Program-made: the position numbers and the translations under genes
Assembly: GCA_002150815.3 (NCBI GenBank)
Contig: NDFF03000013.1
Coordinates: 868,001 to 932,000, forward strand
Source of the DNA: Grammothele lineata
Taxonomy: Eukaryota; Basidiomycota; Agaricomycetes; Polyporales; Polyporaceae
DNA length: 64,000 nucleotides
Direction of reading: 5' to 3'
Notes under the pieces: generated by a model
Seen by the model: only the letters and a program-made list of their open reading frames with translations
Databases searched by the model: none
What the model was told of the DNA's origin: nothing
Part shown: one piece after another, positions 47,914 through 64,000 of the stretch
Layout: the number at the start of each line of letters is the position of its first letter
How positions within the stretch are numbered: position 1 is the first letter of the stretch

Positions 47914-50415
47914 TCACAACTCGTCGACTTGCACGGGAAGACATGCACCAAGTTCTGGCTTGTCTACAACCCACGCTTGAAGGCTTGACGCGATCTTGAG
48001 GGTGATGTCCAGATTGGCCGAAGTGAATCGGAACTTTTTCATGAGCGCTGTTAAGATCACCTAAAACCTATGAGCACTGGCTCGTTCTCATACAAGTACC
48101 AGCATACCTTATACTGAAACACCGCTATGTAGGAATATGATACAGTCAGGATCCAGTAAGGGTGCAGAATGCGTGAGTGTAGACTCACCGAGTCGGGTAC
48201 CAATACAGTTACGAGGTCCATCACTGAATACGAGCAGATTTCCCCATCCTTGACACAAGAGCTCATGGGGTGGGAGCTCTTCAAGCCAGCGCTCCGGTCT
48301 GAACACGTCAGGGTCCTTCCACACGGACTCCATACGTTGGATTGCAATGATAGGGATAACGACGACCTACATTTCTATGGTCAGTGTTGAATGAGAATGA
48401 TGAAGGATAGGGATCTCGAACCTGTCCGGGACTGACGGTCACATGTGTAATTTGGTGGCCATTTATCGTCGAGATGCCAGGTTCACCAACGGGGATGGAG
48501 TCCGTGGTTTGCGCGACTCGTTCCATGTATGGCAAAGCGGGATACATTCGCAGACTACGAAAAAGTATAAGCGCATCGTCGGGCAGTGTTTCACACTTGC
48601 ACGATGACTTACGTCTCTTTCAGTACAGCGTCGAGGTAAGGCAGGCGAGTCTGGAAGTCGTCATACGTAGGCTCGCTAGGGAAAGAACAGATCTCCTCGC
48701 GAAGCTTCTCTTGAATCTCAGGGCGCCTTGAAAGCTCGAATATAGTAAAGCCTAGCGTTTGAGTGGTGGACTCGTGCCCAGACACACTGACAGTCTTCAG
48801 AAAAAGAGCACGAAGAATATAAAACACTTACATGAAGGTTGAAATCTGGGACACAGGGTCATGCTCATAAATCCTCTGCAATAACATACGGAGAGCACTC
48901 GGCGTACCTGTTCAAATAGTTCCTCTCGAGAGATCTTCCCATTCGAGTAAGCAACGACTAACCGAGGTTCAGAGTTTCTCAGATCGGATGATATTGCGTA
49001 AGCTACCCACCTAGTCTACTGAGTAGATCCCTCTCTGTCTTCGGAGTAGCGCCTTTCGAACTGACGATGTCCTGGTTCCTCTTCACCAGCTCGCGTGCGA
49101 CTCCGGACTGAAAAATAACCATTGAACAGAGGATGACAGGTCGCTGACGTGAATAACTCACTTGGATTGTCAATTTAGCGAGGCCTTGACTCTGTATAGC
49201 GTTGATAGGCAACCGATTGAGGATAGGAAAACGTCTCAGGAGCATCAACGTCTGGTAGTAGGAAGGGCCGTTAGAAACGAGCGCGCTCGAAATTCGAGTG
49301 CTTACGAGAAACCCTGCATACTTCGCTGCAGGTGACACGCCACGACGTCGAGCGTTGAGGATCTGTTTCGCGTCACTGCTCTTGCCTCCTTCGAAATCGT
49401 GTAAAAAAGCAGCACGCCCTATGACATTAAGCCTGCGGAGAGCTGAGGATGTGTGTTGATACACGGGACACGATTTACTTACGTTGCCCTTGCAGTCCAG
49501 TCCAAGATGTTGACGTTCTCACGGAGCTCTCGAGATTGAACAAAAGCTAATAGGTCATCCACCACCTACCGAGGGATCAACTTTCCAGAAGTAATACAAT
49601 TATATCAACAAGACAAACCTGGTTCGCAGCTAGTAGAACGTCATCCGTCATGTTCTTAATGTTCGCCGCTCTGACAGTTAAGCTGTCAGCGTGACAATGC
49701 AGTAAAGAGGAAGTATATAGAACGTACGACAGCGAGGGGCTGACTAGATGGCGCATCCGTTTGTGCTCAGATTCGCCTTCAATCCAACCAAGGCCTTTAC
49801 CAAGAAGACGGGATACCCGTGGGCGGACCACGTCGCTATGATCTACCACTCTGCGGTGAGTTACTCTGAGAAGGCAGCATCCAAGGTTCGACTACGTACG
49901 ATAGTCGTATATCTTCTTCTGGAGTATATACGCGATCGCGGTTGGATCGTTCAGACATAACTGCATTTATGACTCAATGAGACTGGCCGTAGGTGATAAG
50001 CGTAAGATGCTACTTGCAATGTCTTTAGCCTGTGAGATATGTCTGAGTTTGTGCCGTGAAGCGGAGGAAACTGAGTGCTTACGCCAAAAGCAGCCTTGAT
50101 ACGGTAGACAAGTCCTAGCTCCTTGCTCCACTGTCTGAACGCGATGCCAGGCTCCTGTTGATGCACCAGCTTCTCATGTCCCCACAAGCCACCAGATACA
50201 GGCTGAAGAACCGGAATTCAAGTGTTGACGAGCGTGCTCTGCAGACGATAACTCACCGGAGCAGGCAAGAGTTCGACATCCGAATTGCGCCTAGTAGAGC
50301 GCAAAACGCGAGCAACAAAAGAGTGTGTGATATTCACCACAAATGCAGCGAAGAGGAAGGCGGCAAGGGTAGCAAAAGGCTCGACATGGGACAAAACATT
50401 CAAGCGTTGGTGCAT
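47914..50415 (-). CDS. Cytochrome P450 monooxygenase A
   Basis: ER-anchored haem monooxygenase. The seventeen exons (high to low) are 50257-50415, 50083-50202, 50014-50022 (9 bases), 49900-49960, 49728-49848, 49619-49670, 49483-49565, 49306-49432, 49162-49251, 49011-49107, 48908-48957, 48832-48875, 48613-48786, 48422-48554, 48189-48366, 48108-48124 (17 bases) and 47914-48060. They sum to 553 residues. The N-terminal anchor (FATLAAFLFAAFVVNI) precedes LPAP...WGHEKLVHQQEP. The I-helix motif is SGHESTTQ, ExxR is E395-R398, and the haem loop FSDGPRNCIG has Cys C494. Head-to-head with a second P450 across about 1 kb. The acceptor of exon 5 (49848) and the 9-base exon are the least certain joints. 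Substrate unknown; oxidation of the cluster scaffold is inferred. Confidence 0.88.
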
Positions 50416-51465
50416 AACACGTTCGACGACAACGACGAGCGAAGAGAGGTTGTCAGGAGATTATCAAGGAGAGAAACCAGGGGAACTTTTCTTACCACCT
50501 CACAACGCTAGCAAATTTAGAACCTTCGGGGAGGCATCTTCTGTCTTACAGCGCTTTACAGAATTCAGGGCGAGAGAAATCATGACTTCGTTCACGAGAA
50601 AGACGCCGCGATTCAAGGGAGCGGGACTCCGGAACATGATGGGCGTGATCAAAATTTAAAAGGCTTGGGGCGGCGTCTGAAATCCGTGATTCGTGACGCT
50701 TAAGTTACACCTTGAACCCAAGCGCACGCGCAAGACTCCCAACTCGTCTGGTATCGAAACATACTCACTTTCACAATCGTTGCTAATACAGGTCAGTGTC
50801 GTGTCAGGACTCAAGAATGACTTCCGCGTTTTCATTAACATGTCACCTTCTGTCTTCAAGCGCGAATCTGCGATCTCGATATTGGTTGAACATGAACGTT
50901 AATTCCTTGACCTTCAAGCCCAGTGACCCCGGACACTGTCCAGCGCTGTTGTGATTGAAGTTGAGCTCGTGTCCTAGGCTCAGCCGTCACCCCAAAAGAT
51001 TAGGTTGTTCGCTATACCATGCTCCGAGGAAGTTCGCTGCCATCTGCGTATCCACATGAAACTCAAGTTGATACGTGGCTTCTATCTATCAGGCGAGAAG
51101 TCGTCGAAGGATGGCTCACCACAACTTGTACATCTTGAGTACGTACCACCGCGCAACAAATTCATCATCTCATCGGAATTGTGGGCGTCCTATCCCATGA
51201 GCCAGGTCATATGTGGTATCTTGGGCGCCCATGTTCACACGGCGGACAACGGCATCGTCCAGCATAAACTCAAACCTTGTCACTGTGTACCGACCGACGA
51301 CTCGGAGGAACGCTCCGTGTTCTGGGGGTTGCGACTATCTCGCTCAATAGGCCGTTGGAGCGTGAAACGAATCCCTCCGAGCGCTGTCATATCTTCCCAG
51401 GGTATCGCGCTCCCTCCCCCACTGTCCCTGGCATGCTCGGGACGACATATCTCGTCGCTCCAGCT
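50416..51465. other. Shared divergent promoter of the two P450 genes
   Basis: About 1.05 kb between head-to-head P450 start codons, with no supported gene inside. This layout allows joint regulation. No clear palindromic activator site was identified by eye. Confidence 0.5.
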
Positions 51466-53650
51466 ATGAGCACCATACTCGCTCTCAGCATTTCGATATG
51501 CGCACTGTACGCATGTCGTATCTTATTTTTTTCTCCTAGATTTCCTCCTGGTCCTCCCGTGTGGCCCCTGATCGGCAACATCTGGCGAGTTCCGCCTCAG
51601 GGAGCATGGATCAAATTCTCAATGTATCGGAGGAAATACGGTATATCGGACGATCTACGTAGCTAGACACAGCTGATGTTGACTTTTTTCAGGCGATCTC
51701 GTATTCTTCCGCGGTCTTGGAAACTGCATTCTTGTCCTGAACTCCATGAAGGCTGTTCAAGATCTTCTTGAGCAACGCAGCGCCACTTACTCCGATCGTC
51801 CTACGTTCACCGTTGTCGGAGAACTTATGGGTCTTGGCCAAGTACGTGCTCAGTAGCAGTCGATGTCACTATCTAACGATTGTACAGAGCATGCCACTGT
51901 TACCCTGCGGAGACGAGTGGCGCGCTCATAGACGACTTTCACATACCGCTCTCAGCCCCTCTGCGGTGAAACGCTACTACTCCATCCAAGAGGACCTCGC
52001 CGTGCTCATGTGCAAGGAGATTCTTACGAGGCCCGCGGATTTCTTTAGCCATGTTAGAGTGTGAGCCTATCCAGTCCCTTCCTCTTCGAATGCTGATAAT
52101 CGTTATGTTGGCAGAACAGCTGCGAGGCTGATCTTGACCATCACTTATGGATTGTCTGTGAGCACTGCTGATAACGAGGTATCCATCGAGATGCATACAT
52201 GGAGTGTGCTCGCACAAACTCACTTCCCCCGTAGTATATCTCGCACGCGGAGGAAACTATGTACATGATCAGTCGTGCTACGGTTCCAGGCGCATTCCTG
52301 TGCGACTTCTTTCCCCTTCGTACGTACGCATTTTCTTAGGATTTGAGACATACCTTAATATTCTCTCACAGTGAAATATCTTCCGCCATGGATACCGTTC
52401 CAGCGCGAAGTTAGAAAAGGTTATAAGATGATAGACACACTCGTGTCTAGACCATACGAACACGTCAAGCGTGAGATGGTAGGTTCTAATATATGTTGTT
52501 CAACTTTAACACAATATTTCACCTTACACAACTCATCTCGGGACGTCTAGGCCGCAGGAATGGCCCCACCCTCTCTCGTCCAAGACCTTCTCTCTACAGA
52601 TAGTTCCAGTGTCAGCAATACCGCCCGCGAGCATCAGATTAAATGGACGGCGGGTGCGCTATACGGAGGTACGTCTATTAACGCCATTGCCTAGTGTTGT
52701 CCTTGACAGATCTTGGTGCAGCTGGGGCAGAGACGGTAAGTTAAACATAGCTAGGCTTCTTGAGCGCGCCGCCATAATGAGTTGATATTGTGGATAGACA
52801 TACGCAACCATATTGACTCTCATCATGGCTATGGCACTCCACCCAGAAATACAGCGCCGCGCTCAGGCTGAGCTTGACAGCATCGTTGGTTTGGACAGCT
52901 TACCAACCATCTCGCACCGAGAACTCCTTCCGTACGTCAACGCGGTCATTAAAGAAACTATGCGTTGGCATCCCGCACTGCCCTTGAGTATGCAATCTTT
53001 GATACCGCGGAAGCGCGTTCACAGTACTCATATAGCCGTCTCTAGGTATTGCCCGTTGCACTTCCGAAGACGATGTTTACGAAGGGTATGTCATTCCTAA
53101 GGGTACCATCGTAGTGCCGAATGTTTGGTGAATTGTAATCTACAATTCGCTGTTGATTCACGCATTGATCACCGCGTCGATTAGGTCGATAGCATTCGAA
53201 GAAGATGGTCACGGCGACCCTCTTTCATTTGTTCCCGAGCGGCACTTATCTCAGTCAAAAAGTGAGGAATACCTTGACCCTGCTTCGTGGGCGTTTGGAT
53301 TCGCACGTCGGTGAGCAGATCTACCTTCCCTGTCAAACTTCAGTTCTCGTTATGACAAGGCTTTCTATAGTGTCTGCCCTGGGAAATATCTAGCGGAGAA
53401 CTCTATTTTCATTCTGGCTGCGACGATCTTGACCTCTTTCGACATCTATCCTCCCGAAAATGGGCAGCTGCGCACGGAGTTCACGAAAGGTCTCGTCAGG
53501 TGAGCTATGTCCAGAATTAATTCGGCGCCCCGATGGGACTGATTGTTACATGATATCAGTTACCCGGAACCCTTCACATGCAAAATCATCCCTCGAAGCT
53601 CCTCTCGTGCTTCTCAAATCACCTGGAAGTGTAACCTATCAAACCTATAG
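51466..53650 (+). CDS. Cytochrome P450 monooxygenase B (CYP64-clan-like)
   Basis: ER-anchored P450 resembling OrdA/CYP64-type and basidiomycete CYP5144-type enzymes. Exons are 51466-51640, 51693-51841, 51888-52060, 52115-52178, 52235-52319, 52372-52478, 52551-52668, 52722-52735 (14 bases), 52798-52987, 53046-53127, 53185-53310, 53371-53499 and 53560-53650, giving 500 residues. A membrane anchor is followed by the [14 protein letters not shown] hinge. AGAET (291-295) is encoded by the 14-base exon, ExxR is E348-R351 (KETMR), and PERHL comes before the haem loop. The haem loop reads FGFARRVCPG with C430; the usual Gly of FxxGxRxCxG is Ala426, which may alter haem environment. All exon phases agree, so the gene looks functional. 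Neighbours suggest a role in the UbiA cluster. Confidence 0.88.
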
Positions 53651-54139
53651 CGGGAGCTAGCCTCTCTTAGGCAGAACTATACCGCGCAGTCCTGACGGGC
53701 GGATGATATCGAGTTTCTGAACGGGTACTCAGATGTTCGACTAGCACGAAGAGAACGCCTTCGAGTGGTCTGCGGCTCGCGTTCATTGGACCGGGCTTTC
53801 TTTATATGACCGTAGTGGATGTGCACTCCTGGCCCTGACTTGTAGGACGCCTCTTATGTGAGAGCTCCCAATGTGAAGGGCACTCTTCCGAGATGCCTGA
53901 GCGCCGAGTGAGCAGGGCGAGTGACAGGGCAGGGAACCCTAATTTTCTGTACCCCTGGGAGACTAATCGTGATTACTACGGGTATTCGAACCGCTGATAG
54001 ATTTCGATGGATGCGACGAAACATTCGCGGTACGTAACAGCCGGCCCGCATGATGCTGTACTAGAGGAACGAAGTTCTTCCTTGTTCTGCATACAGAAGA
54101 AAAACCAGCCTGGCGCACCCACAGAACTTGGATTCGAAG
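53651..54139. other. Convergent 3' flank of P450 B and UbiA genes
   Basis: About 490 bases of 3' UTR and spacer, with no gene recognised. A GGTATTCGAACC palindrome near 53980 looks T-arm-like but is not part of a tRNA. Confidence 0.45.
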
Positions 54140-55211
54140 TCACCAGGAAAATGCACCGAAGCGTTCACGTAAAGGCAGCATATGAGCGAAAGATAGCCAT
54201 ACCTATGGCTTCGATGTTTAGAAGGCATCGTGATGATACGGCAGACAGTCCTTACGTTGAATAATACGTAGGAGAACTTATCCGCCTTCGGGGTCCTCAA
54301 AAAGAAGAACCGTAGGCCTACGAATGTGCCTAGCGCTAGGAAGCTCGCGCCGCACCTCGGCCCAACGCCCCAGAAGCCGCTGAGAAAAAGCGACCAGGAT
54401 ACCATGGCGCCCAAAGTCGTGGCTCTCGACACTTCAGGAGCGTATATGGGGAACGTAACGCGTCCTCGGCACCTATCGCCATCGACGTCGGAGAAATCCT
54501 GTGCCTGGATGGTGGTAAAGATGAGTGCGCCGCTGATGCAGATTGCGGTCGTCGCGATCGCATCCAACTTCGAAGACGCGCCTGGTGGACGTGAGCGCAC
54601 TGATCAGTGTAGTAGGGGTACGAGATGAGGACGCACCGACGAGTATCGTTGAGCCTAGTTCAAGTGACGTATACCCTCCGATGTTACAGAAGTTCTTGCC
54701 AATCGGATGTTCGGACCAGCCGAGCTCGTCGTATACGAGGGTCGTCAACACTATCCCCACAGAAGCCGGAAGGACAGAATCGCCAAAGACCGCGGGACTA
54801 CACAGGCACAGAGCCACAGTGAGCCATCGTAGTGCCTTAGCTTGCGCTTGAGTGACACGACCGGCGGGAAGTGGTCGCCACGGCTTGTTGATCAGGTCCT
54901 CCTCGCGACTTCTCGCCTGGTTCGAGATATTGCACATGAGTTGGTGCAAGTATAGCCATGCCATGCCGGCAATGAAATGACGGAGAGAGTGCAGTGGAGC
55001 AGTTGCGCCGGCGAAAATAGTCTAGTAATTTGGTTAGTTAGAGCTATCTGTCTCTCAAAGTCGGACGTACGATCGGGAAGAAAACCGTCTTCATATCAGA
55101 GATGGTGAACAAGAAGATGGTTCGTGCTTGATAGACCAGGAAGCGAGTCACTGAGGAAGATACTTCAGTGAGAGAGTCAAGAGTGGGTGGTGAGAATGTT
55201 GTGATGAGCAT
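54140..55211 (-). CDS. UbiA-family membrane enzyme (prenyltransferase or terpene cyclase)
   Basis: Intramembrane enzyme acting on prenyl diphosphates with Mg2+. Exons (high to low) are 55071-55211, 54637-55021, 54256-54581 and 54140-54202, giving 304 residues with several hydrophobic helices. The first Asp motif is N81-x3-S85-x3-D89 (NQARSREED) followed by LINKPWRPLPAGRVT, the fungal EboC-like signature; the middle Asp of the classical NxxxDxxxD is Ser. The second motif is D204-x2-D207-x-D209-x-D211 (QDFSDVDGD), then RGRVTFP. The short last exon NVWLSFAHMLPLRERF gives the usual final helix. UbiA-type terpene cyclases are reported with a replaced middle Asp (from memory), so cyclisation rather than aromatic prenylation is plausible. 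Position among two P450s and a methyltransferase makes it the likely core of a cluster. Confidence 0.85.
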
Positions 55212-56758
55212 CGAAGTTAGCAGGTTTGGCAAGGATGTGATCTACCTCTTTATATTGAACAAGTCGCACGGGCGAACTGTCCCCATACTACTCTCAGCAC
55301 GTCAGATAGTGCTTCAACCAAGCGGCGTTTCCAGAGCTGCAAGCTTCATATTCCACGGTCGATGAGCATCTCGCGCATCCTATCAGAAGGCGGATCCATT
55401 GAGTAGCCTCAAGCCATAGACATGGGCCATCCGTCCGAGTTTATGGAACAGTGGTCTAGCTATTTCCACGCTGGGGATTCAGCCTCAGTAGATGCAATGA
55501 AGACTTACCCCGTAACGTCGGGACGACGGTTACGCACTCCTTCCGACTGGCGAGTAGAGTTGATGAGAATCGTCGCGCGCATCGATAAGGAAAATGTGCG
55601 AAAGGAGTGTTATGATTTGTGTGCGCGTGTAGTCGCATTCTGGGCCAGATGAGAATGAAAACTGCCTCGCGGCAAGGCGTCTGTGCGATTGAGAACCTGG
55701 AGAATCCTGGAAGTGCCATTCAATAAGCTCCGACTTGATGAACTCTCTCGATAGTCCCAACGCTGCCGTCAATATCTAGTTCTAGAGCCTCGGCCTCTTC
55801 ACAGTGGTGCCTAGATCGCATGTCAACGGGAGTCGCTGATGAAAAACAGTCAAGAATTACTGTCAGCAAAATGGACCTGGAAATGCGAATCCAAACGTAC
55901 CTATTTGGTGCTTTTACGATGCACTCTAATCGATAGTTCGATAATCGAGGCCCAGAGGTCGAAATTTACTCTTGACATTGCCGGCAGCCTTAACGGTCAG
56001 GTAAATACTAAACGTAGAAGCTGGACGCACTGCGCGGTTCTTCCACAGCTACTAAGTGGCATCATATTGTCTCACTTTACGTGGTAGGCTCCGCGGGGCA
56101 CTAAGTCCGTAGAAAGCTTGGGCGATAGGCCTCGTAACTTGTTACAGTAGCTACGTTAAGTTCTCAGCTTGGCTGCCGACACTGAACCAACTAATACTAA
56201 AAGCTCACAGTGCTGAGTCATGCCGGCATTCCGCCTGGCGCCACCGCCCGCAGTGCCCCTCCCTGGGTCATTTGTTTGTGCCGTTGTCAGGACGGTTGCC
56301 GTCCCTCTTTCTTCATCGGCGTGTACTGGTAGGCTGGCCCGACGGGGTTGAAACTTTGAAAGTTAACCGGTAACTGCCAGTGACGCCGGTCACCACATAA
56401 GAGCTCATGGAGAGCTGACATAAGCGGAGCGCTCACTCTTCACATTAGCGCTTCCGAGGCCAAGTTCGACCAAGTCACCGCTCAGGTCCATTGTTACTAG
56501 CGATCAACGTTACCCACAGCGCTCGCAGTACGTTTCTACGCCAGAACTCAATCTGATGGCTATGATCCATTGGAACCGAAGTGCCGCTGGCTTTCGCAGC
56601 GCTGCAGCCTAAGGGAAACTGCATCTTATGATCTTTTTAGCGCGATACCTCTTGTGGTAGCATACTTCACTAGCAGCTCCAAGCGTACCCCCCACTGGCA
56701 TATAAGTCCCTCATCGCAAGCCTTCCTGTCTGCTTCGTGGAGGTAATGTGTTAATGTC
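55212..56758. other. Divergent intergenic region between UbiA and methyltransferase genes
   Basis: About 1.5 kb with no convincing gene on either strand and many stops in all frames. It must contain the promoters of UbiA (-) and the methyltransferase (+). The right edge carries a TATA box at 56701. Confidence 0.5.
56701..56706 (+). promoter_or_regulatory. TATA box of cluster methyltransferase
   Basis: CATATAAG lies about 55 bases before the ATG at 56759. It supports that start and the otherwise hard-to-see first exon of 33 bases. Confidence 0.5.
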
Positions 56759-57997
56759 ATGTCGTCCTCTTATGAGACGTACACCTTCAAGGTGGGCCCC
56801 AGCCTTGTTCCGGTTATACTGATCTTGCAAATAATCTGAGTCTACTTATCTCTAGCCCGCGGATACGAGCACTGAGACGGCACGGTTCGTCAACAGAGGC
56901 TTACTGAACAACCCTCACACACGTATTCTCACCGGATCTGCGCCAGCCTCGATGACTTATACTCAGGTCTCATGGGATTCCTCAAGAATCGTATCGCTTT
57001 TGCTTCGTTGGAGTCTACATCCCCCGCTTCCATACTAGAGATTGGGTATGTCCCGTGAACGCCGATCTTTGAACCACGCTAATCCGTCCAGGTACGGGAC
57101 TGGGGCTTGGTAGGGCCCGTATGTCTCGACCGGCTCTTAGTGAGATCTGACTTTTCTTAGGGCGAACGATGCCGCTATACAGTTTCCCGCTGCCCAGGTA
57201 GTCGCGATCGACCTCAACCGTCCTCCTGAAAAGTTTGTAGTCCCCATAATCATGCTCTTACTAGTGTACACTGATGTCTCTGTTTAAACAGAAGTTTTCC
57301 ACCTAATGTGAAGTTCATGCAAGCGGACATCACTCAGCCTTTCCCATTTCCTGAAGAGAGCTTCGATGTCGTCCACGCTCGTTTGGTCCTCGTGCATGTA
57401 CGTCTACTATTACGGCTACCGGTGATATTTTGTTGTTCTCAACCAGTCTAAATGCAGATATCTGATGGCGAACACGCTCTTCGCCGCATTGTGAAACTCG
57501 TAAAGCCTGGCGGGTGGTTGCTTGTCGAAGAGCCAGACATGGAGGGCATGACAGATGGGGAGAAACCCCTTGGCCCGGGCATGACCACATTCATTCAAAC
57601 TTGGCTACGACTAGTGCGAGCTCGTGGAGTCAACCCCGCGTTGGGCCGTGAGCTAGAGCGTATCATTACATCGACTGGCGTCTTCAGTGACGTGAATGTG
57701 AAAAAAGTCGTCATCCCTGTATCAGGAAAATGCGACGGCGAGTCCTGCCTTTCTGTAGTATTGCTCATGCCACTATGTTGCTAATGGATGAGTCGATCTT
57801 CAGACCCAGCGTTGAACAACTTGGGAGAACGTTGGAGGAAGACCATGGAGCACGTTGCTTGTGACCTGCCCGCCCGATTTGCTGACCTTGGGATTACCGG
57901 AGAAGTTGTCGAGAACCATCTTTCTGAATTGCGAGACCCTATCCGAAACATAACGGCAGATATGTATTTCTCTTGGTCGCGCAGAGGTTATGACTGA
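56759..57997 (+). CDS. Class I SAM-dependent methyltransferase (cluster)
   Basis: Cytosolic small-molecule methyltransferase of the UMTA-like type found in fungal specialised metabolism. Exons are 56759-56791, 56856-56884, 56947-57045, 57092-57109 (18 bases), 57161-57232, 57292-57397, 57458-57737 and 57804-57997, giving 276 residues. The short N-part is SSYETYTFKPADTSTETARL then DDLYSGLMGFL. SAM motif I is LEIGYGTGAW (E52-G58), the acidic end of strand 2 is VVAIDLN, and then come FMQADITQPFPF, FDVVHARLVLVH and KLVKPGGWLLVEEPD. The second and third exons were joined by a 62-base intron, which alone restores ETARLDDLY in phase. The last intron appears to use a GC donor (ACG|GCGAGT). Probably O- or C-methylates the cluster product (inference). 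Confidence 0.85.
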
Positions 57998-58314
57998 AAC
58001 TACACAATGATAAGTGCTCTTTTCGCAACTTGACTTCCGCGCTTTGCGCCTTCGAAACGTAATCAGTGAACCAGCTTGATCCTGCCTGGGTGAAAACAAA
58101 TGCTATATCCATTCATTAAACCTTCCGGTCCATCGCGCACTAGTAGTAGAAACACCGTGCGCGAAACTGTGAGGATAGAAAAGCCGCGACTAAACCGATC
58201 CCAAGGCTCTAGGTGTGGATGCGGAGCGCCGTTCACGGATAACGATGGCCCTGAATCTCATACCTATGGGAACGTAGTGAACATGGAGGTGCGTAATGCA
58301 GGTAAAGACGAGCC
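57998..58314. other. Convergent 3' flank
   Basis: About 320 bases between the methyltransferase and the aldo-keto reductase 3' ends. Nothing recognised. Confidence 0.45.
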
Positions 58315-59749
58315 TTACAGTTCCTCCAGATACTTGATCTCCTCCTTGGTTAGCGTCTTATCCGTAATTATGTTATCCTGGAGTCGCAAGGGCTGTGTGC
58401 AGTACGTGGTCAACATTCAGCGTTCAACTAAGACGACCACCCCAGTTGCGCCTAAAGCCAGTCCCTACGCACTGTATTCGCGCCGACTATCGGGCTCGTC
58501 GCCTTCGCCGCTACCCACGCAAGTGCTACTTGACACATAGCCCAGTTCTTCTTCTTCGCGAGCTCCTCCACCCGCCTAATGATCTGCTTGTCCGACTCGC
58601 GTCGAGGCTTCTCAAAGAACGACCCGGCGATAATCTTCGTACGCGCTGTCTCTGCTCCGACTGGACGGGCTAAGTGGCCGTCCATCAGCGGAGAGTACGC
58701 AAGGACGCCGATTCCCTTGAAGTTGCAGTAATCGATCATTTCCATTTCCTGAAAAGGAGCCACCGATCGCGCCAGTTGTCAGAAGGAGTGGCAGACGGGA
58801 GAGGAGACGGACGCACCTCAGGGCGGTACAGGAGCGAGTACTCGATCTGGACGCTCACAAACGTCGTCCAGTGGTTCACCTCCGCGACACGATTCATCTC
58901 CGCGACCTTCCACGCCCGCATGTTGCACGCCCCAAGGTACCGCACCTTGCCCATCGTTACAAGGTCATGCAGCGCCTTCATTGTCTCTGTGATTGGTGTA
59001 GTCGGGTCGAAGATATGCACCTGGAGAAGGTCGATGTATGACGTCTGGAGACGGGCGAGGGACGCATCGACCTGGTTAAAGAGAGCGCCGCGGGAAAGGC
59101 CACCCTGGTTTACATATTCGCGGGTGCTGCCGAGCGGAGGATTGAGCATGGTCTGGGTGGCGGGATCGTCTGCCACAAGGAAGCCGGCCTTGGTCAAGAG
59201 GACGATCTTCTCGCGGGGAATCGAGTACTACGAAAGGCGTCGGATGTCAGCAGTGTGTTATTCGTGCATTGTATTAGGGAATAGACCTTGTTCATGAATG
59301 CAGCAATAACCTTCTCTGATTCTCCGTTAGAGTAGGTATTGGCCGTATCGATGGTGTTGATGCCGAGATCCCAGGCAGCCTTGAGGAGGGGAAGAGCCTG
59401 GGGGGGGGATCTTGAATATCCGGCTATGGGCAATATGCGGAGTACTGACTTTGTCTTCCGTGAGGCCCCAACGCTATTCGGAGACGACATGTTTGATGGC
59501 ACCGAGCGAGTGGCGAAGCAACGCGGTAACGTGCGGAAAAGTACATGCCAGTCAGAATGCGAGAAGTGGGGAGTAGAGAAGAATGGCGGAGACCGACAAT
59601 CCATTGATCGTTCCCGACTGTCATCCCGCCAAACTAAAGCGCAGAAACGCGCGGTGAGCGTGGGTGCACGAGTAGTCGAAGTCCGGTTCACTCACAACGG
59701 GAACTGAGATGCGAAGTCCAGAACTGCCGAGCTGGCGGTATTCTGCCAT
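58315..59749 (-). CDS. Aldo-keto reductase
   Basis: Cytosolic NADPH-dependent carbonyl reductase of the (beta/alpha)8 AKR family, aryl-alcohol-dehydrogenase type common in wood-decay fungi. Exons (high to low) are 59696-59749, 59598-59633, 59450-59473, 59287-59397, 58817-59227, 58473-58748 and 58315-58392, giving 329 residues. The catalytic tetrad is complete: D55 ([15 protein letters not shown]), Y60, K88 (LLTKAG) and H146 (LLQVHIFD). YSPLMDG, VALAWV and SPIVGAN follow, then the C-terminal [13 protein letters not shown]. Exons 2 and 3 are tiny (36 and 24 bases) and supply [11 protein letters not shown] and RWGLTEDK; without them the gene would seem broken. The intron before exon 4 ends in a run of nine C followed by AG. 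It sits between the methyltransferase and a hydrolase and likely belongs to the cluster. Confidence 0.85.
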
Positions 59750-61764
59750 GATGGGCTCACGGGCGGGATGTAATGCTTTGAGAATCAGACGTGAATGCCT
59801 ATAGTAATGTGTGTCTGGCAGATACAGTCGGGATGGAACTTGGGCTGCGTGGATCTGAACCACAGGCTAAGTAATCTCCAGAGAGGGGACAACCTGAAAA
59901 TCCGGGTGAACACAAGTTTGCGCTTGGAAGAAGCCGCGCTCGTTCGACCGCCAGTATTGTTGCCGGGAAGCGGAATGAGGTTCGCGGGCGAGACGCACGG
60001 CATGCACCAGAAGCGGCGTTCGCTGGCAGACGAGCGTGATGTGTGGACAAATGGATACATATCCGTCTCAACGATCATATTCTGTGTGTGCTATAGAATG
60101 CGTCGGCGGTCTTGAGAAGGCGCAGATTGATGCAGGCCAGAACCTCTTGGTACGACTTGGGTATGATGATCAACGTGCCCGTCGACCACGGATGAGGGGC
60201 GCTCGTGCCGCCTACTCGGAGTCGGCGGGGTCGGAGCAAGGCTCCCCTACGAAGCGTGGGTAACTTCAGTGTACTTTTTGCAAGACTTTTTGATGGCTTG
60301 TCCCATATTCAGTCCCTCGATGTGGATACCTACAAAATGGTATGTATCAGCGGGGGAGTAACTCTACGATACCTACGGAGGATCTGGATGGAGGCCGAAC
60401 CAGTTCTTTACCATTTGCGTTGGGCGCGAAGGAGCAGTGCTACCGCCCCATATATGTCTACAGATTGGACTCTTGGTTTGTTGAGGAGTTTGTCTTCAGG
60501 TATTCCGCTATCCCTACACTATTTAAGTTGGGTTCGCAAGTTGTCTGACCAAGCTGTATACATGAGTTACTGTCGGTACAGAGTCCACGAAGAACAAGGA
60601 GAGTAAACGTACCAGACACCCCAACTCACGAGCGGCTCCCAATTTCAAAATTACGTACCATGTATGTGTTCTTCATTGGACGCCGCAAAAGTGGGCATGG
60701 TGCTCCTGCAACGTAATTCAATGCTTCTCAGGCACGCCGCGGCTCACGTTGAAGTTAGTCTGAAAGCAGCCACGGCGTGTGCGTGAATTGAGACTGGTGC
60801 GTGCGCCGATAGCGGAAGATTTCGGGTGAATAGTCCTGTTGAACTCTGCGTGTACCCTCCATCTTTTCTCAGAGCCTGGTTCGCGGATATCTGATCCACT
60901 CGATGGGCGTGATATGACGCGCGCGCCGGGAGTCGGGACCCACAGACACACTCGCCATCTAGCAGCGCGTTTCAACTGCGCCCGAACCGAGGCCTCACCC
61001 TGCCGGTAGATAGTATCCACCAGAGATCGTACCTATTGTAGACCAAACATGCAACCACGAGTCAGTGGAATTCCGCACAATGCTATATCATCGAGCTTGA
61101 GAGAAGCATCAGCACTTACCGAGTCGCACGTGTGAGCACTTGCCCATGCCCTGTGTGAGCCGAGTCCTCCAAGTCCACATACTCACAATTGGCCCTTGGA
61201 TATCCTTACTATGCACAAGAGACACGTCGCTTCGCTTGGAACGTTGTGTCTAGTGTTGGGACACTGAGCGTTTGATTACCCTATATTACCATCTTCTCGC
61301 GCAGTTTGGTGGGTGCGCAGCATTGCAGCGACGTTAAACGCAAAGCTTGCCTCAAGAGTCCAACTCGGGTAACGTCTAGCAGAAGGTCAAGAAAGGCTGG
61401 AGTTTCAGAGTCACTGCGCGAGCGGGGGACCCTGCGCTGGGGAGTCGCGACTCGCGAGGCTACGGCACTTAAGAGACGCTCGTGCCAAATAGAGACAAAC
61501 GAAGTCCTGCGAAAAATTAAACTGTTCAGTCGGCCATCATTAATTAAGTATTCTCTGCTACTGATTCACAGGTAGAGCGTGCATCGCTATATGCGTGAGG
61601 TGAAGGCTATAATGATACATAGCAATAGTGTACACTGTGCTGCACTCTGCACAAATCCAAGAATACTCGTACATATCGACAAAATCAGATGGGGAGTTGA
61701 ACTGACGATTGCAACGGCAGGTTCAATGGTAACCCTGCTTATTGCATAGCGTCGAGGAAAAGCT
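59750..61764. other. Gene-free stretch inside the cluster (2 kb)
   Basis: Contains the AKR promoter (-) and the 3' flank of the hydrolase (-). One short frame at about 60342-60548 ends in a protein-like stretch (YRPIYVYRLDSWFVEEFVFR) but has no support from splice sites or a known family. Many stops elsewhere. Confidence 0.45.
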
Positions 61765-62939
61765 TCAATGCGAGCTCGGGCTCCGCAAGATGAACCTGAA
61801 GGGGAGATGGATGAGCTCAGAGTCACCGTGTGGTTCATTTTGCCCACGTACGAAGTGATTAATACCGGGAATCATCTTGAAGTCGATGTGACTGCCGCCA
61901 CGGGCCTCGTCGTCCTCTTGCATTTTCCAGAAAGCAGGTATAGCGAAGGGGGGTGAAGCGTCTCCGGCAAGCATCGTGATTTTCGCATGAGGAATCATCT
62001 CTCGGATCTGCTTGCTGTAGCAAGCCTTCTTGTAACTTGCGTTAATCGAAGATGCGGAATGAACCATGAAGTCCATGTCCGAATTCATCGCCGGTGGTTC
62101 GTATATAATACGATCCACATCCTCTTCCGACATACCATAGATAGAGGGCGCGCGGGAAGACGTGGGGACGAGGAACGAGAGAACGTTGGTATCGCGCTTG
62201 CTGAGGTCTCCGTGCTTGAAATAAGACGTGATCCAGTGGTTGAAGAATGCGACGCGGCGGTCCTCGGGTATAGTATCGTCCGTGAGCGGACTCCACAATC
62301 CTTCAACTAAAGGTGTCCCGACGGCGACTGTTGGGGGTTCTGCACCGCGGGTTCTGTTATCAACATTATGGCATCTTACAGTGTGTGGAGAAAAAGCGTA
62401 CCGTAAAGAATGAGTGCTCTAAAATGGCTTTTCCACAACGTTCGAGAAGACGAAGGGATAGCGTCCAGGTGAGCCACGGCAGAGATGGCGAAGGCGTTAC
62501 CCAGAGACCACCCCAAAAGCGCAAACCCGCCGGATACGCCATCGATGGGGTGGATAGTATTCCTCTCAGCAAAACGTTCAATGAACGTAGACACTTCGAC
62601 ACCTCTTGCCCGGAGAAATGCGACCTTCTCCGCTTCGGAGCCGGACTTCAAAGCTTCCTTCTCCTCATCGGACAGAGGAGTTGATCCCGGATAGTCGCGG
62701 CGGTTTATAGCGACAATGCGGACGCCGAATAATGCGGACAGAGCCATGACCTTCTCAAAGATGACTGCGTGAGACGAAGATGAGACATGCCGTATGTCAA
62801 AGCAGGGTAAGACATTACCATTGGTGAAGACAGTACCGTGAATAGCAAATATAGTGATGTAGGTTGTCCCAACGAGGGGAACACCACTGTCGATGTAAGC
62901 GAGTTTTGTGCCTTTACTGTCGACAACGATAGAATCCAT
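61765..62939 (-). CDS. Alpha/beta-hydrolase fold protein
   Basis: Soluble serine hydrolase of the alpha/beta fold. Exons (high to low) are 62819-62939, 62402-62764 and 61765-62339, giving 352 residues. The oxyanion strand IFAIHGTVFTNG is followed by NRRDYPGSTPLS. The nucleophile elbow is G-W-S127-L-G (ALLGWSLGNAF), the acid probably D288 (LAGDASPPF), and the base H323 (IPGINHFV). No signal peptide. A TATAAA lies only 20 bases before the ATG, so either the leader is very short or this box is not used. The acceptor of the last exon was taken at GCAG|AACCCC to keep EPPTVAVGTPLVEG in phase. At the edge of the cluster it might hydrolyse an ester or epoxide, which cannot be told apart here. Confidence 0.85.
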
Positions 62940-64000
62940 TGTGCAGGAGTGGGACCGGTTTATAGACAGTAACACGAGATGGGGATGAGAGTTCCGGCAT
63001 CTTGGATTATTGGGGCATTCTTATACTGGCTGCGTTGCTGTTGGCGATGACGAAAGCCGCACGTTTAACTTTCTTAACTAGGACGTGTCATTGAGGAACC
63101 GCATGCTGGCTTGCCGCTGAGGCTGTAACTTCATGAAGGCTCTACTACTAGCCTATTGTTCCGTTTCCGAAACGTCCAGGTAGGTACTGGCTCCCGGTGT
63201 GCCCGAAAGATGAAGCGTTTGGCAGTCTTGTAGCGATTGCGCTCGAGACAAACTGGCCGCTACCGAACAACTTTTGAACTTAGCGTGGCGCCCGGATCCG
63301 GGGCGAGCCTGTGGCGCTTCGGCGCTTCCACGGTGGCGTCAGCCTGAGGTCCGATCCCTCATACCACATGTTTGAGGAATCCTCAGCCTCAGCGCATAGC
63401 ATTACTAGTAGCAGGACTGGTATCCTATGCAGACACGACTTGCGAGGCCATTCCCACAAGCCCGTAGCGGATCTGATGCCTGCATCTGACGTTTGACGTC
63501 CTAGTCGCTAACTTTAAGTACGTCCAATGCTTTCACGCAGCGACGAGGAGTCACCCAGACTCGATCCCCGCAGGTTTTCGAGTCCGACGCTACTGGCAAC
63601 ACTGCCCCAGAGTTGACACGTCGATGCAAACATCCTCATAGAACAGCCTAAGAAGACGTCTCCCTGAGGACTCTTTCTGAAGGATTCATGTGGCTGTCCA
63701 TGCGAGGCCGACTATAGCAGGTACATTCTCCGCAGGACCGCTGGACGCTCGTGGTCAAGGATTGTGTACACTCGCTGCATTCCTGCCAGGGCTGCTCCTT
63801 CGCGCAAGAGCATCAGAGCAGTGGACGTTGAAATGAAGCGTTACCCAGGCAAGGGCCGCGAAACATTCTGTAGGGCCTACAGTCCGCTCTCCGAGTTACC
63901 GTAGCCTATGAGTATGTAAGTATGAGGGGTCAGCGGTAGTCCAGTTGAGGGTTAGAAGGACACATGAATTCTGTTGTACGGATACAGTGTGCGATGCTAG
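62940..64000. other. Right-end non-coding stretch
   Basis: About 1 kb to the window edge with no supported gene, tRNA or repeat. It may hold part of the next gene's flank. Confidence 0.45.

What the first reader, a model, noticed from the sequence alone, without database searches (positions are those of the whole stretch)
47914..62939. Candidate UbiA-centred biosynthetic gene cluster
Six consecutive genes are all specialised-metabolism types: two P450s, a UbiA-family membrane enzyme, a SAM methyltransferase, an aldo-keto reductase and an alpha/beta hydrolase, with an MFS transporter at the left edge. No PKS, NRPS or class I terpene synthase is present. That leaves the UbiA protein as the only plausible scaffold-forming enzyme, and routine cluster finders may miss such a locus. 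Base composition looks lower in GC than in the left half.
Basis: partly seen in the sequence, partly recalled or inferred. Interest (0 to 1): 0.8.

Follow-up and report, generated by a model that had tools for sequence, protein, structure and literature searches.

The report
Polypore UbiA-type sesquiterpene gene cluster
A wood-fungus genome carries a compact set of six genes that very probably makes an oxidised, methyl-esterified sesquiterpene using an unusual membrane-bound cyclase; the same kind of gene set has already been characterised in the medicinal mushroom Antrodia cinnamomea.

Summary
Six genes lie at 47914-62939, each spliceable into an uninterrupted frame: P450A(-), P450B(+), UbiA(-), methyltransferase(+), aldo-keto reductase(-), alpha/beta-hydrolase(-). 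They fill a low-GC block, 51.3% against 58.7% left and 58.6% right. The UbiA protein is of the terpene-cyclase type: it keeps all five residues whose mutants were dead in the alpha-bisabolene synthase Tps1A of Antrodia cinnamomea. It is 58% identical to Taiwanofungus AcW1_003222, whose residue numbers fit Tps1A; the methyltransferase's best hit is AcW1_003216, six tags away on the same contig. UbiA and P450A relatives share a contig in 15 of 25 species (15 of 29 with weak P450 rows put back), UbiA and methyltransferase in 6 of 10, against about 1 and 0.4 expected. So the UbiA-centred cluster holds, but the kind is known: Hewage 2023 expressed the tps1 cluster (cyclase, P450, methyltransferase, giving a bisabolenoic acid methyl ester). 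The MFS gene is not shown to belong. Product, expression and the roles of P450B, reductase and hydrolase are inferred. New member of a known kind.

The parts
47914..50415 (-). P450A, 17 exons, 542 aa, including a 12-nt micro-exon and one GC-AG intron; candidate first oxidase (Tps1H-like role inferred)
   Evidence: models; PF00067, on the earlier 538-aa version; relatives share a contig with UbiA relatives in 15 of 25 species
51466..53650 (+). P450B, 13 exons, 500 aa, member of a family with many paralogues in this genome
   Evidence: model; PF00067; paralogues
54140..55211 (-). UbiA-type terpene cyclase, 4 exons, 304 aa; motif I N81..D89, Y144, motif II QD204xxD207xxxD211
   Evidence: (model)
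56759..57997 (+). SAM-dependent methyltransferase, 8 exons, 276 aa, one GC-AG intron; probable Tps1D counterpart (carboxyl O-methyltransferase, inferred)
   Evidence: model; 257-aa core 57% to AcW1_003216; 152 of 276 identical; domain, on the core
58233..59749 (-). Aldo-keto reductase, 8 exons, 338 aa, with the Asp, Tyr, Lys and His patterns
   Evidence: model; PF00248; PDB relatives
61739..62939 (-). Alpha/beta-hydrolase, 4 exons, 342 aa, GWSLG nucleophile elbow
   Evidence: model; PF12697, just below cut-off
50416..51465 (.). Divergent spacer between P450A and P450B
   Evidence: gene starts; no shared promoter word
55212..56758 (.). Divergent spacer between UbiA and methyltransferase; 55300-56740 matches only itself in the genome
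45665..47527 (+). MFS transporter at the left edge (approximate span, not modelled exon by exon); membership in the cluster not shown

Best explanation
The locus is a tps1-type sesquiterpenoid biosynthetic gene cluster. The membrane-bound UbiA-fold cyclase ionises FPP with Mg2+ held by D89 and D204/D207/D211 and closes it, most likely to an alpha-bisabolene-type hydrocarbon. A P450 (P450A favoured) oxidises a methyl group to a carboxylic acid and the methyltransferase esterifies it. P450B, the aldo-keto reductase and the alpha/beta-hydrolase then tailor the product by further oxidation, carbonyl reduction and ester or epoxide hydrolysis. Shown here: gene content, uninterrupted frames, motif conservation and linkage in relatives. 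Inferred by homology: the cyclisation, acid and methyl-ester steps. Guessed from enzyme class: the last three steps and their order.
For: UbiA: the five residues whose mutants were inactive in Tps1A (D100, Y155, D215, D218, D222; PMC9835599) sit at exactly those numbers in P0009 (T. camphoratus AcW1_003222) and align with D89, Y144, D204, D207, D211 here. 58% identity over 90% of the query by BLAST; 165 of 301 aligned positions globally. Tree: in one group with Tps1A and 19 other rows, support 82/88. QDF.D..GD in 118 of 120 listed homologues. Four other UbiA loci of the genome (three on C43, one on C233) show ND..D...D and no cyclase pattern. Methyltransferase: best of 110 hits is AcW1_003216, 57%, on the contig of AcW1_003222. 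Linkage: UbiA with P450A 15 of 25 species (0.97 expected), UbiA with MT 6 of 10 (0.37), MT with P450A 4 of 6 (0.14). In Hohenbuehelia grisea one annotated protein holds UbiA and a P450A-type P450. Ganoderma adspersum has close tag numbers: 002414 UbiA, 002415 P450A, 002417 MT.
Against: No expression or chemistry data. The product could differ: 55-58% identity does not fix a terpene product. The group with Tps1A has only moderate support (82/88, below the tool's 95/80 mark), and 99/95 unites this protein with 19 others to the exclusion of Tps1A. The published motif I has G or A where this protein has S, although S is the commonest letter in relatives (50 of 84). 10 of 25 species, or 14 of 29 with weaker P450 rows put back, do not have UbiA and P450A relatives on one contig, among them the close relative Phanerochaete carnosa; 4 of 10 lack the UbiA-MT link and 2 of 6 the MT-P450A link. 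Linkage of P450B, reductase and hydrolase was not tested. No shared promoter word was found. The nearest solved structure by sequence is a prenyltransferase-like enzyme, digeranylgeranylglyceryl phosphate synthase, 30 bits. Which T. camphoratus P450 is Tps1H could not be settled.
Confidence: 0.75

Rival explanations
1. The UbiA protein is an aromatic prenyltransferase and the locus makes a meroterpenoid.
For: PF01040 is shared with prenyltransferases. Nearest solved structure by sequence is digeranylgeranylglyceryl phosphate synthase. UbiA prenyltransferases are active in basidiomycetes, e.g. H. grisea HGRIS_000139 (PMC11574748 passages) and Laetiporus LaPT3 (PMC12790560, part 1 of 5 read).
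Against: No NDXXDXXXD motif here, whereas four other UbiA loci of the same genome have it; two more (C107, C206) showed none of the patterns tried. Motif II is QDXXDXXXD. The relative best tied to an experiment is a cyclase.
Confidence: 0.08
2. The UbiA protein is a diterpene cyclase acting on GGPP, like EriG, and the locus makes a diterpenoid.
For: EriG belongs to the same non-canonical class (PMC9835599), and Termitomyces UbiA proteins were tentatively labelled diterpene cyclases (PMC8751386 passages).
Against: No prenyl-diphosphate synthase match on contig C13. Tps1A gave no extra product when a GGPP synthase was co-expressed (PMC9835599), and the MT linkage follows the tps1 cluster.
Confidence: 0.1
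3. Only UbiA, P450A and MT form a pathway, while P450B, reductase, hydrolase and MFS are bystanders.
For: Linkage was tested only for UbiA, P450A and MT. P450B and reductase families have many other members in the genome. No shared promoter word.
Against: All six share one low-GC block with edges on both sides, and tps1 of A. cinnamomea also holds several P450s and reductases (PMC9835599).
Confidence: 0.25

Closest known systems
tps1 gene cluster of Antrodia cinnamomea (Taiwanofungus camphoratus), Hewage et al. 2023, PMC9835599
   Same: UbiA-type cyclase with the same catalytic residues; a methyltransferase whose apparent counterpart is six locus tags from the cyclase on the same contig; several P450s and reductases
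   Different: Six genes here against ten expressed there; a hydrolase is present here and not named in the four of five parts of that paper that I read; gene-by-gene correspondence of P450s and reductases not established; no chemistry here
Fma-TC, beta-trans-bergamotene synthase of the fumagillin cluster of Aspergillus fumigatus
   Same: UbiA-type sesquiterpene cyclase with QDXXDXXXD (as stated in PMC9835599)
   Different: Tps1A is only 36% identical to Fma-TC according to that paper; Fma-TC was not compared directly here; the fumagillin cluster carries polyketide synthase genes (recalled)
EriG, cyathadiene synthase of Hericium erinaceus
   Same: Basidiomycete UbiA-type cyclase (PMC9835599)
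   Different: Acts on GGPP (recalled); no prenyl-diphosphate synthase match on this contig; not compared directly
UbiA cluster 10 of Irpex lacteus Y1 (PMC11677564, passages read)
   Same: UbiA-class terpene cyclase with several P450s
   Different: Four P450s and one GMC enzyme; no methyltransferase mentioned in the passage; sequence not compared; a different genome despite the same 41.83 Mb size (55 contigs and 49.82% GC there)

Membership tests
UbiA-type terpene synthase (Tps1A/Fma-TC/EriG class) | Motif II QDXXDXXXD | tested here: met
   QDFSDVDGD at residues 203-211
UbiA-type terpene synthase (Tps1A/Fma-TC/EriG class) | Motif I ends: N and the catalytic D (Tps1A D100) | tested here: met
   N81 and D89
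UbiA-type terpene synthase (Tps1A/Fma-TC/EriG class) | G or A in the middle of motif I, NXXX(G/A)XXXD | tested here: inconclusive
   S85 here. Among 84 of 120 listed homologues with a readable motif: S 50, G 15, T 14, A 2, others 3, so the published letter choice is too narrow to decide
UbiA-type terpene synthase (Tps1A/Fma-TC/EriG class) | Tyrosine equivalent to Tps1A Y155 | tested here: met
   Y144
UbiA-type terpene synthase (Tps1A/Fma-TC/EriG class) | Cyclises FPP in an assay | not testable with these tools
   Needs expression
tps1-type cluster | Tps1D-like methyltransferase beside the cyclase | tested here: met
   MT start lies 1548 bp from the UbiA start; best relative AcW1_003216 lies on the contig of AcW1_003222. 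That AcW1_003216 is Tps1D is inferred from position; the paper's main text gives no accession
tps1-type cluster | Tps1H-like P450 making the C14 acid | tested here: inconclusive
   The P450A relative listed for T. camphoratus (AcV7_005936, 66%) comes from another strain's assembly, so it could not be placed relative to Tps1A
tps1-type cluster | Product 14-bisabolenoic acid methyl ester | not testable with these tools
   Needs chemistry
UbiA aromatic prenyltransferase | NDXXDXXXD motif I | tested here: not met
   NQARSREED here; ND..D...D in four other UbiA loci of the same genome, three on C43 and one on C233
Class I terpene synthase cluster | Terpene_syn_C_2 domain in the locus | tested here: not met
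   None of the 31 PF19086 matches in the genome lies on C13

The most novel reading that the evidence does not exclude
UbiA-type cyclase plus P450A is an old, widely kept biosynthetic module of mushroom-forming fungi (polypores, Mycena, Pleurotus, Termitomyces, a bolete), and in polypores the added methyltransferase, P450s and reductase turn it into a pathway to juvabione-like, insect-juvenile-hormone-mimicking methyl esters; this locus is one compact instance with a hydrolase added.
Probability: 0.2. Interest if true: 0.6.

Novelty: new member of a known kind. Interest (0 to 1): 0.4.

Why it matters
UbiA-type cyclases build terpene skeletons without the usual terpene synthase fold, and cluster finders may pass over UbiA genes: in Hohenbuehelia grisea no UbiA-like prenyltransferase gene was found in the 21 fungiSMASH clusters (PMC11574748 passages), while a survey of Irpex lacteus does mention a UbiA-class cyclase cluster (PMC11677564 passages). 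This locus gives a small six-gene test case for the missing later steps of the tps1 pathway, and the recurring UbiA-P450A pair gives a handle for finding more such clusters.

Tried and rejected
Irpex lacteus Y1 as the source genome: its size matches (41.83 Mb) but it has 55 contigs and 49.82% GC, against 252 contigs here and a window mostly above 50% GC; rejected.

A broken methyltransferase: I first read its N-terminus as frame-shifted and used only the 257-aa core. Comparison with P0121 showed a missed intron; the gene is uninterrupted. P450A was likewise first modelled without its micro-exon (538 aa) and corrected to 542 aa.

A duplicate of the cluster elsewhere in the genome: none seen, but searches scored only 80 of 233 and 86 of 509 candidates. 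The nearest UbiA paralogues are three genes on C29; no listed P450A or MT match lies on C29, and one hydrolase-family match lies there at 147 kb, some 200 kb away. Repeats in the spacers: 55300-56740 and 60100-61700 match only themselves. Shared promoter words in four upstream regions (two cut at 1 kb): no excess over 60 shuffles; the test is weak.

Families for the methyltransferase and hydrolase in NCBIfam: nothing over a cut-off; best methyltransferase match BioC, 45 bits against 185. The genome-wide P450 profile search scored 92 of 546 candidates and did not list the two cluster P450s; not used. No structure was predicted: by its description the fold tool takes window sequences only as the DNA gives them letter for letter, which a spliced protein is not, and I did not fold a relative.

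Limits of the linkage count: same contig is judged by organism name plus contig length, typed by hand from the listed rows (120 of 146 hits; 110 of 110; 120 of 229). Only NCBI-named rows were used. For P450A I left out rows under about 44% identity, one Postia row at 47%, and rows without a contig; putting the NCBI-named ones back adds four species, all unlinked, giving 15 of 29. For MT, 16 fungal rows of 110 were kept, leaving out four Aspergillus rows at 26-27% and bacterial or unnamed rows. The chance figure assumes 40-Mb genomes. The T. camphoratus P450A row (another strain) and the H. grisea row were not counted. The tree used 42 of the 120 listed UbiA hits, the UbiA half of P0265 and four rows of this genome.
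Full report
Observation. Exon models were assembled by hand from the sequence and checked by script: P450A 50415-47914 (-), 17 exons, 542 aa; P450B 51466-53650 (+), 13 exons, 500 aa; UbiA 55211-54140 (-), 4 exons, 304 aa; methyltransferase 56759-57997 (+), 8 exons, 276 aa; aldo-keto reductase 59749-58233 (-), 8 exons, 338 aa; alpha/beta-hydrolase 62939-61739 (-), 4 exons, 342 aa. Introns are 45-124 nt, GT-AG except one GC-AG each in P450A and the methyltransferase. No transcript data support the splice sites, so single junctions may be off.

Boundaries. GC is 51.3% in the cluster, 58.7% over window 1-45000 and 58.6% over the 29 kb to the right, so the AT-richer block is an island that matches the cluster. 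To the right lie a Pil1-like frame (26.0 bits, cut-off 27) and an elongation-factor GTPase frame (108 bits); to the left two MFS exons and an O-fucosyltransferase-like frame, all under their cut-offs. Nothing found ties the MFS gene to the pathway. The two spacers tested match only themselves.

The UbiA protein. The 16 PF01040 matches in the genome fall at ten places. With this protein as query only C13 and C29 answer, and a profile of the family finds three C29 genes within about 16 kb. Its listed hits named by a source are fungal, the best dozen or so at 53-60%: Phanerochaete, Trametes, Ganoderma, Fomes, Taiwanofungus and others. I read four of five parts of PMC9835599 and passages by search. 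There, Tps1A and Tps2A of A. cinnamomea, given as 50%/68% alike, both make (+)-(S,Z)-alpha-bisabolene from FPP, and Tps1A mutants D100A, D215A, D218A, D222A and Y155A lose activity. P0009, T. camphoratus AcW1_003222, has D or Y at exactly these five numbers, so I take it as Tps1A; the main text gives no accession. The window protein aligns with it at 165 of 301 positions (54.8%; BLAST gives 58% over 90%) and keeps all five residues. The tree of 47 rows groups it with Tps1A and 19 others at 82/88, moderate support; 99/95 unites it with those 19 without Tps1A; many forks are open. ND..D...D, the prenyltransferase pattern, occurs at four other UbiA loci of this genome (three on C43, one on C233) and not here; the C107 and C206 loci showed none of the patterns tried, and the C29 genes show NQxxDxxxD with the cyclase patterns.

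Partners. The methyltransferase core's best hit among 110 is AcW1_003216 (57%), on the 1,406,655-base contig that holds AcW1_003222. In tps1 the methyltransferase Tps1D esterifies the C14 acid made by P450 Tps1H; AcW1_003216 as Tps1D is my inference from position. P450A's hits often lie on the same contigs as the UbiA hits. Unlinked: Amylostereum, Artomyces, Athelia, Collybiopsis confluens, Dichomitus (mixed strains), Paramarasmius, Phanerochaete carnosa, Stereum, Stygiomarasmius and Tetrapyrgos for the first pair; Amylostereum, Mycena epipterygia, M. olivaceomarginata and Trametes sanguinea for the second; Amylostereum and Favolaschia for the third. Putting back the weaker P450A rows that I had left out adds Trametes sanguinea, Pisolithus tinctorius, Peniophora CBMAI 1063 and Obba, all unlinked: 15 of 29. 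Same contig is not adjacency, and small contigs can hide it; the G. adspersum tags 002414, 002415 and 002417 and the joined H. grisea annotation point to adjacency there.

Mechanism. Most likely FPP to an alpha-bisabolene-type hydrocarbon (UbiA), methyl to acid (P450A favoured because of its linkage; P450B was not tested), acid to methyl ester (methyltransferase), then P450B, reductase and hydrolase. The first three steps rest on homology to experimentally shown steps; the last three on enzyme class only. I put about 0.5 on alpha-bisabolene itself and 0.85 on a sesquiterpene.

Rivals. Prenyltransferase and diterpene cyclase readings are disfavoured by motifs, by the absence of a listed prenyl-diphosphate synthase match on C13 and by the tps1 linkage. 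A smaller true cluster of UbiA, P450A and methyltransferase with bystanders remains open. The promoter-word test found no excess and is too small to count for or against.

Novelty. The kind is known. In the library searched, PMC9835599 is the only paper I found that characterises such a cluster (searches; listings, apart from the papers named as read or as passages). The recurring UbiA-P450A pairing was not met in what I read, which is not proof that it is unpublished.

Noticed in passing
G000 C29:347811-363378 (in L012, L013, L014): Three further cyclase-type UbiA genes sit within about 16 kb near a contig end, in a branch apart from the window gene (long branches, place unsure). By eye, P450-like frames lie beside the first of them at about L012 7692-9682; not family-tested. 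No P450A-like or methyltransferase match was listed on that contig.
   Followed up: partly
P0265 (Hohenbuehelia grisea HGRIS_014587): One annotated protein of 852 aa carries a UbiA cyclase followed by a P450A-type P450; probably two neighbouring genes merged by annotation, possibly a real fusion.
   Followed up: partly
window 50018-50029 and 57738-57803: A 12-nt micro-exon followed by a GC-AG intron in P450A, and a GC-AG intron in the methyltransferase; automatic gene callers could miss both.
   Followed up: yes
window 48000-64000: Low-GC island (0.50-0.53 per 4 kb) with edges matching the cluster, both flanks near 0.587 overall; cause unknown.
   Followed up: partly
G000 C11:688459-691318: Relatives of the cluster hydrolase, apparently two adjacent genes, up to 48% over the longest stretches and 65% over a short one.
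   Followed up: no
Ganoderma adspersum tags V8D89_002414 to 002433: Two P450A relatives and two methyltransferase relatives within about 20 tags of the UbiA gene, suggesting an internally duplicated version of the cluster.
   Followed up: no
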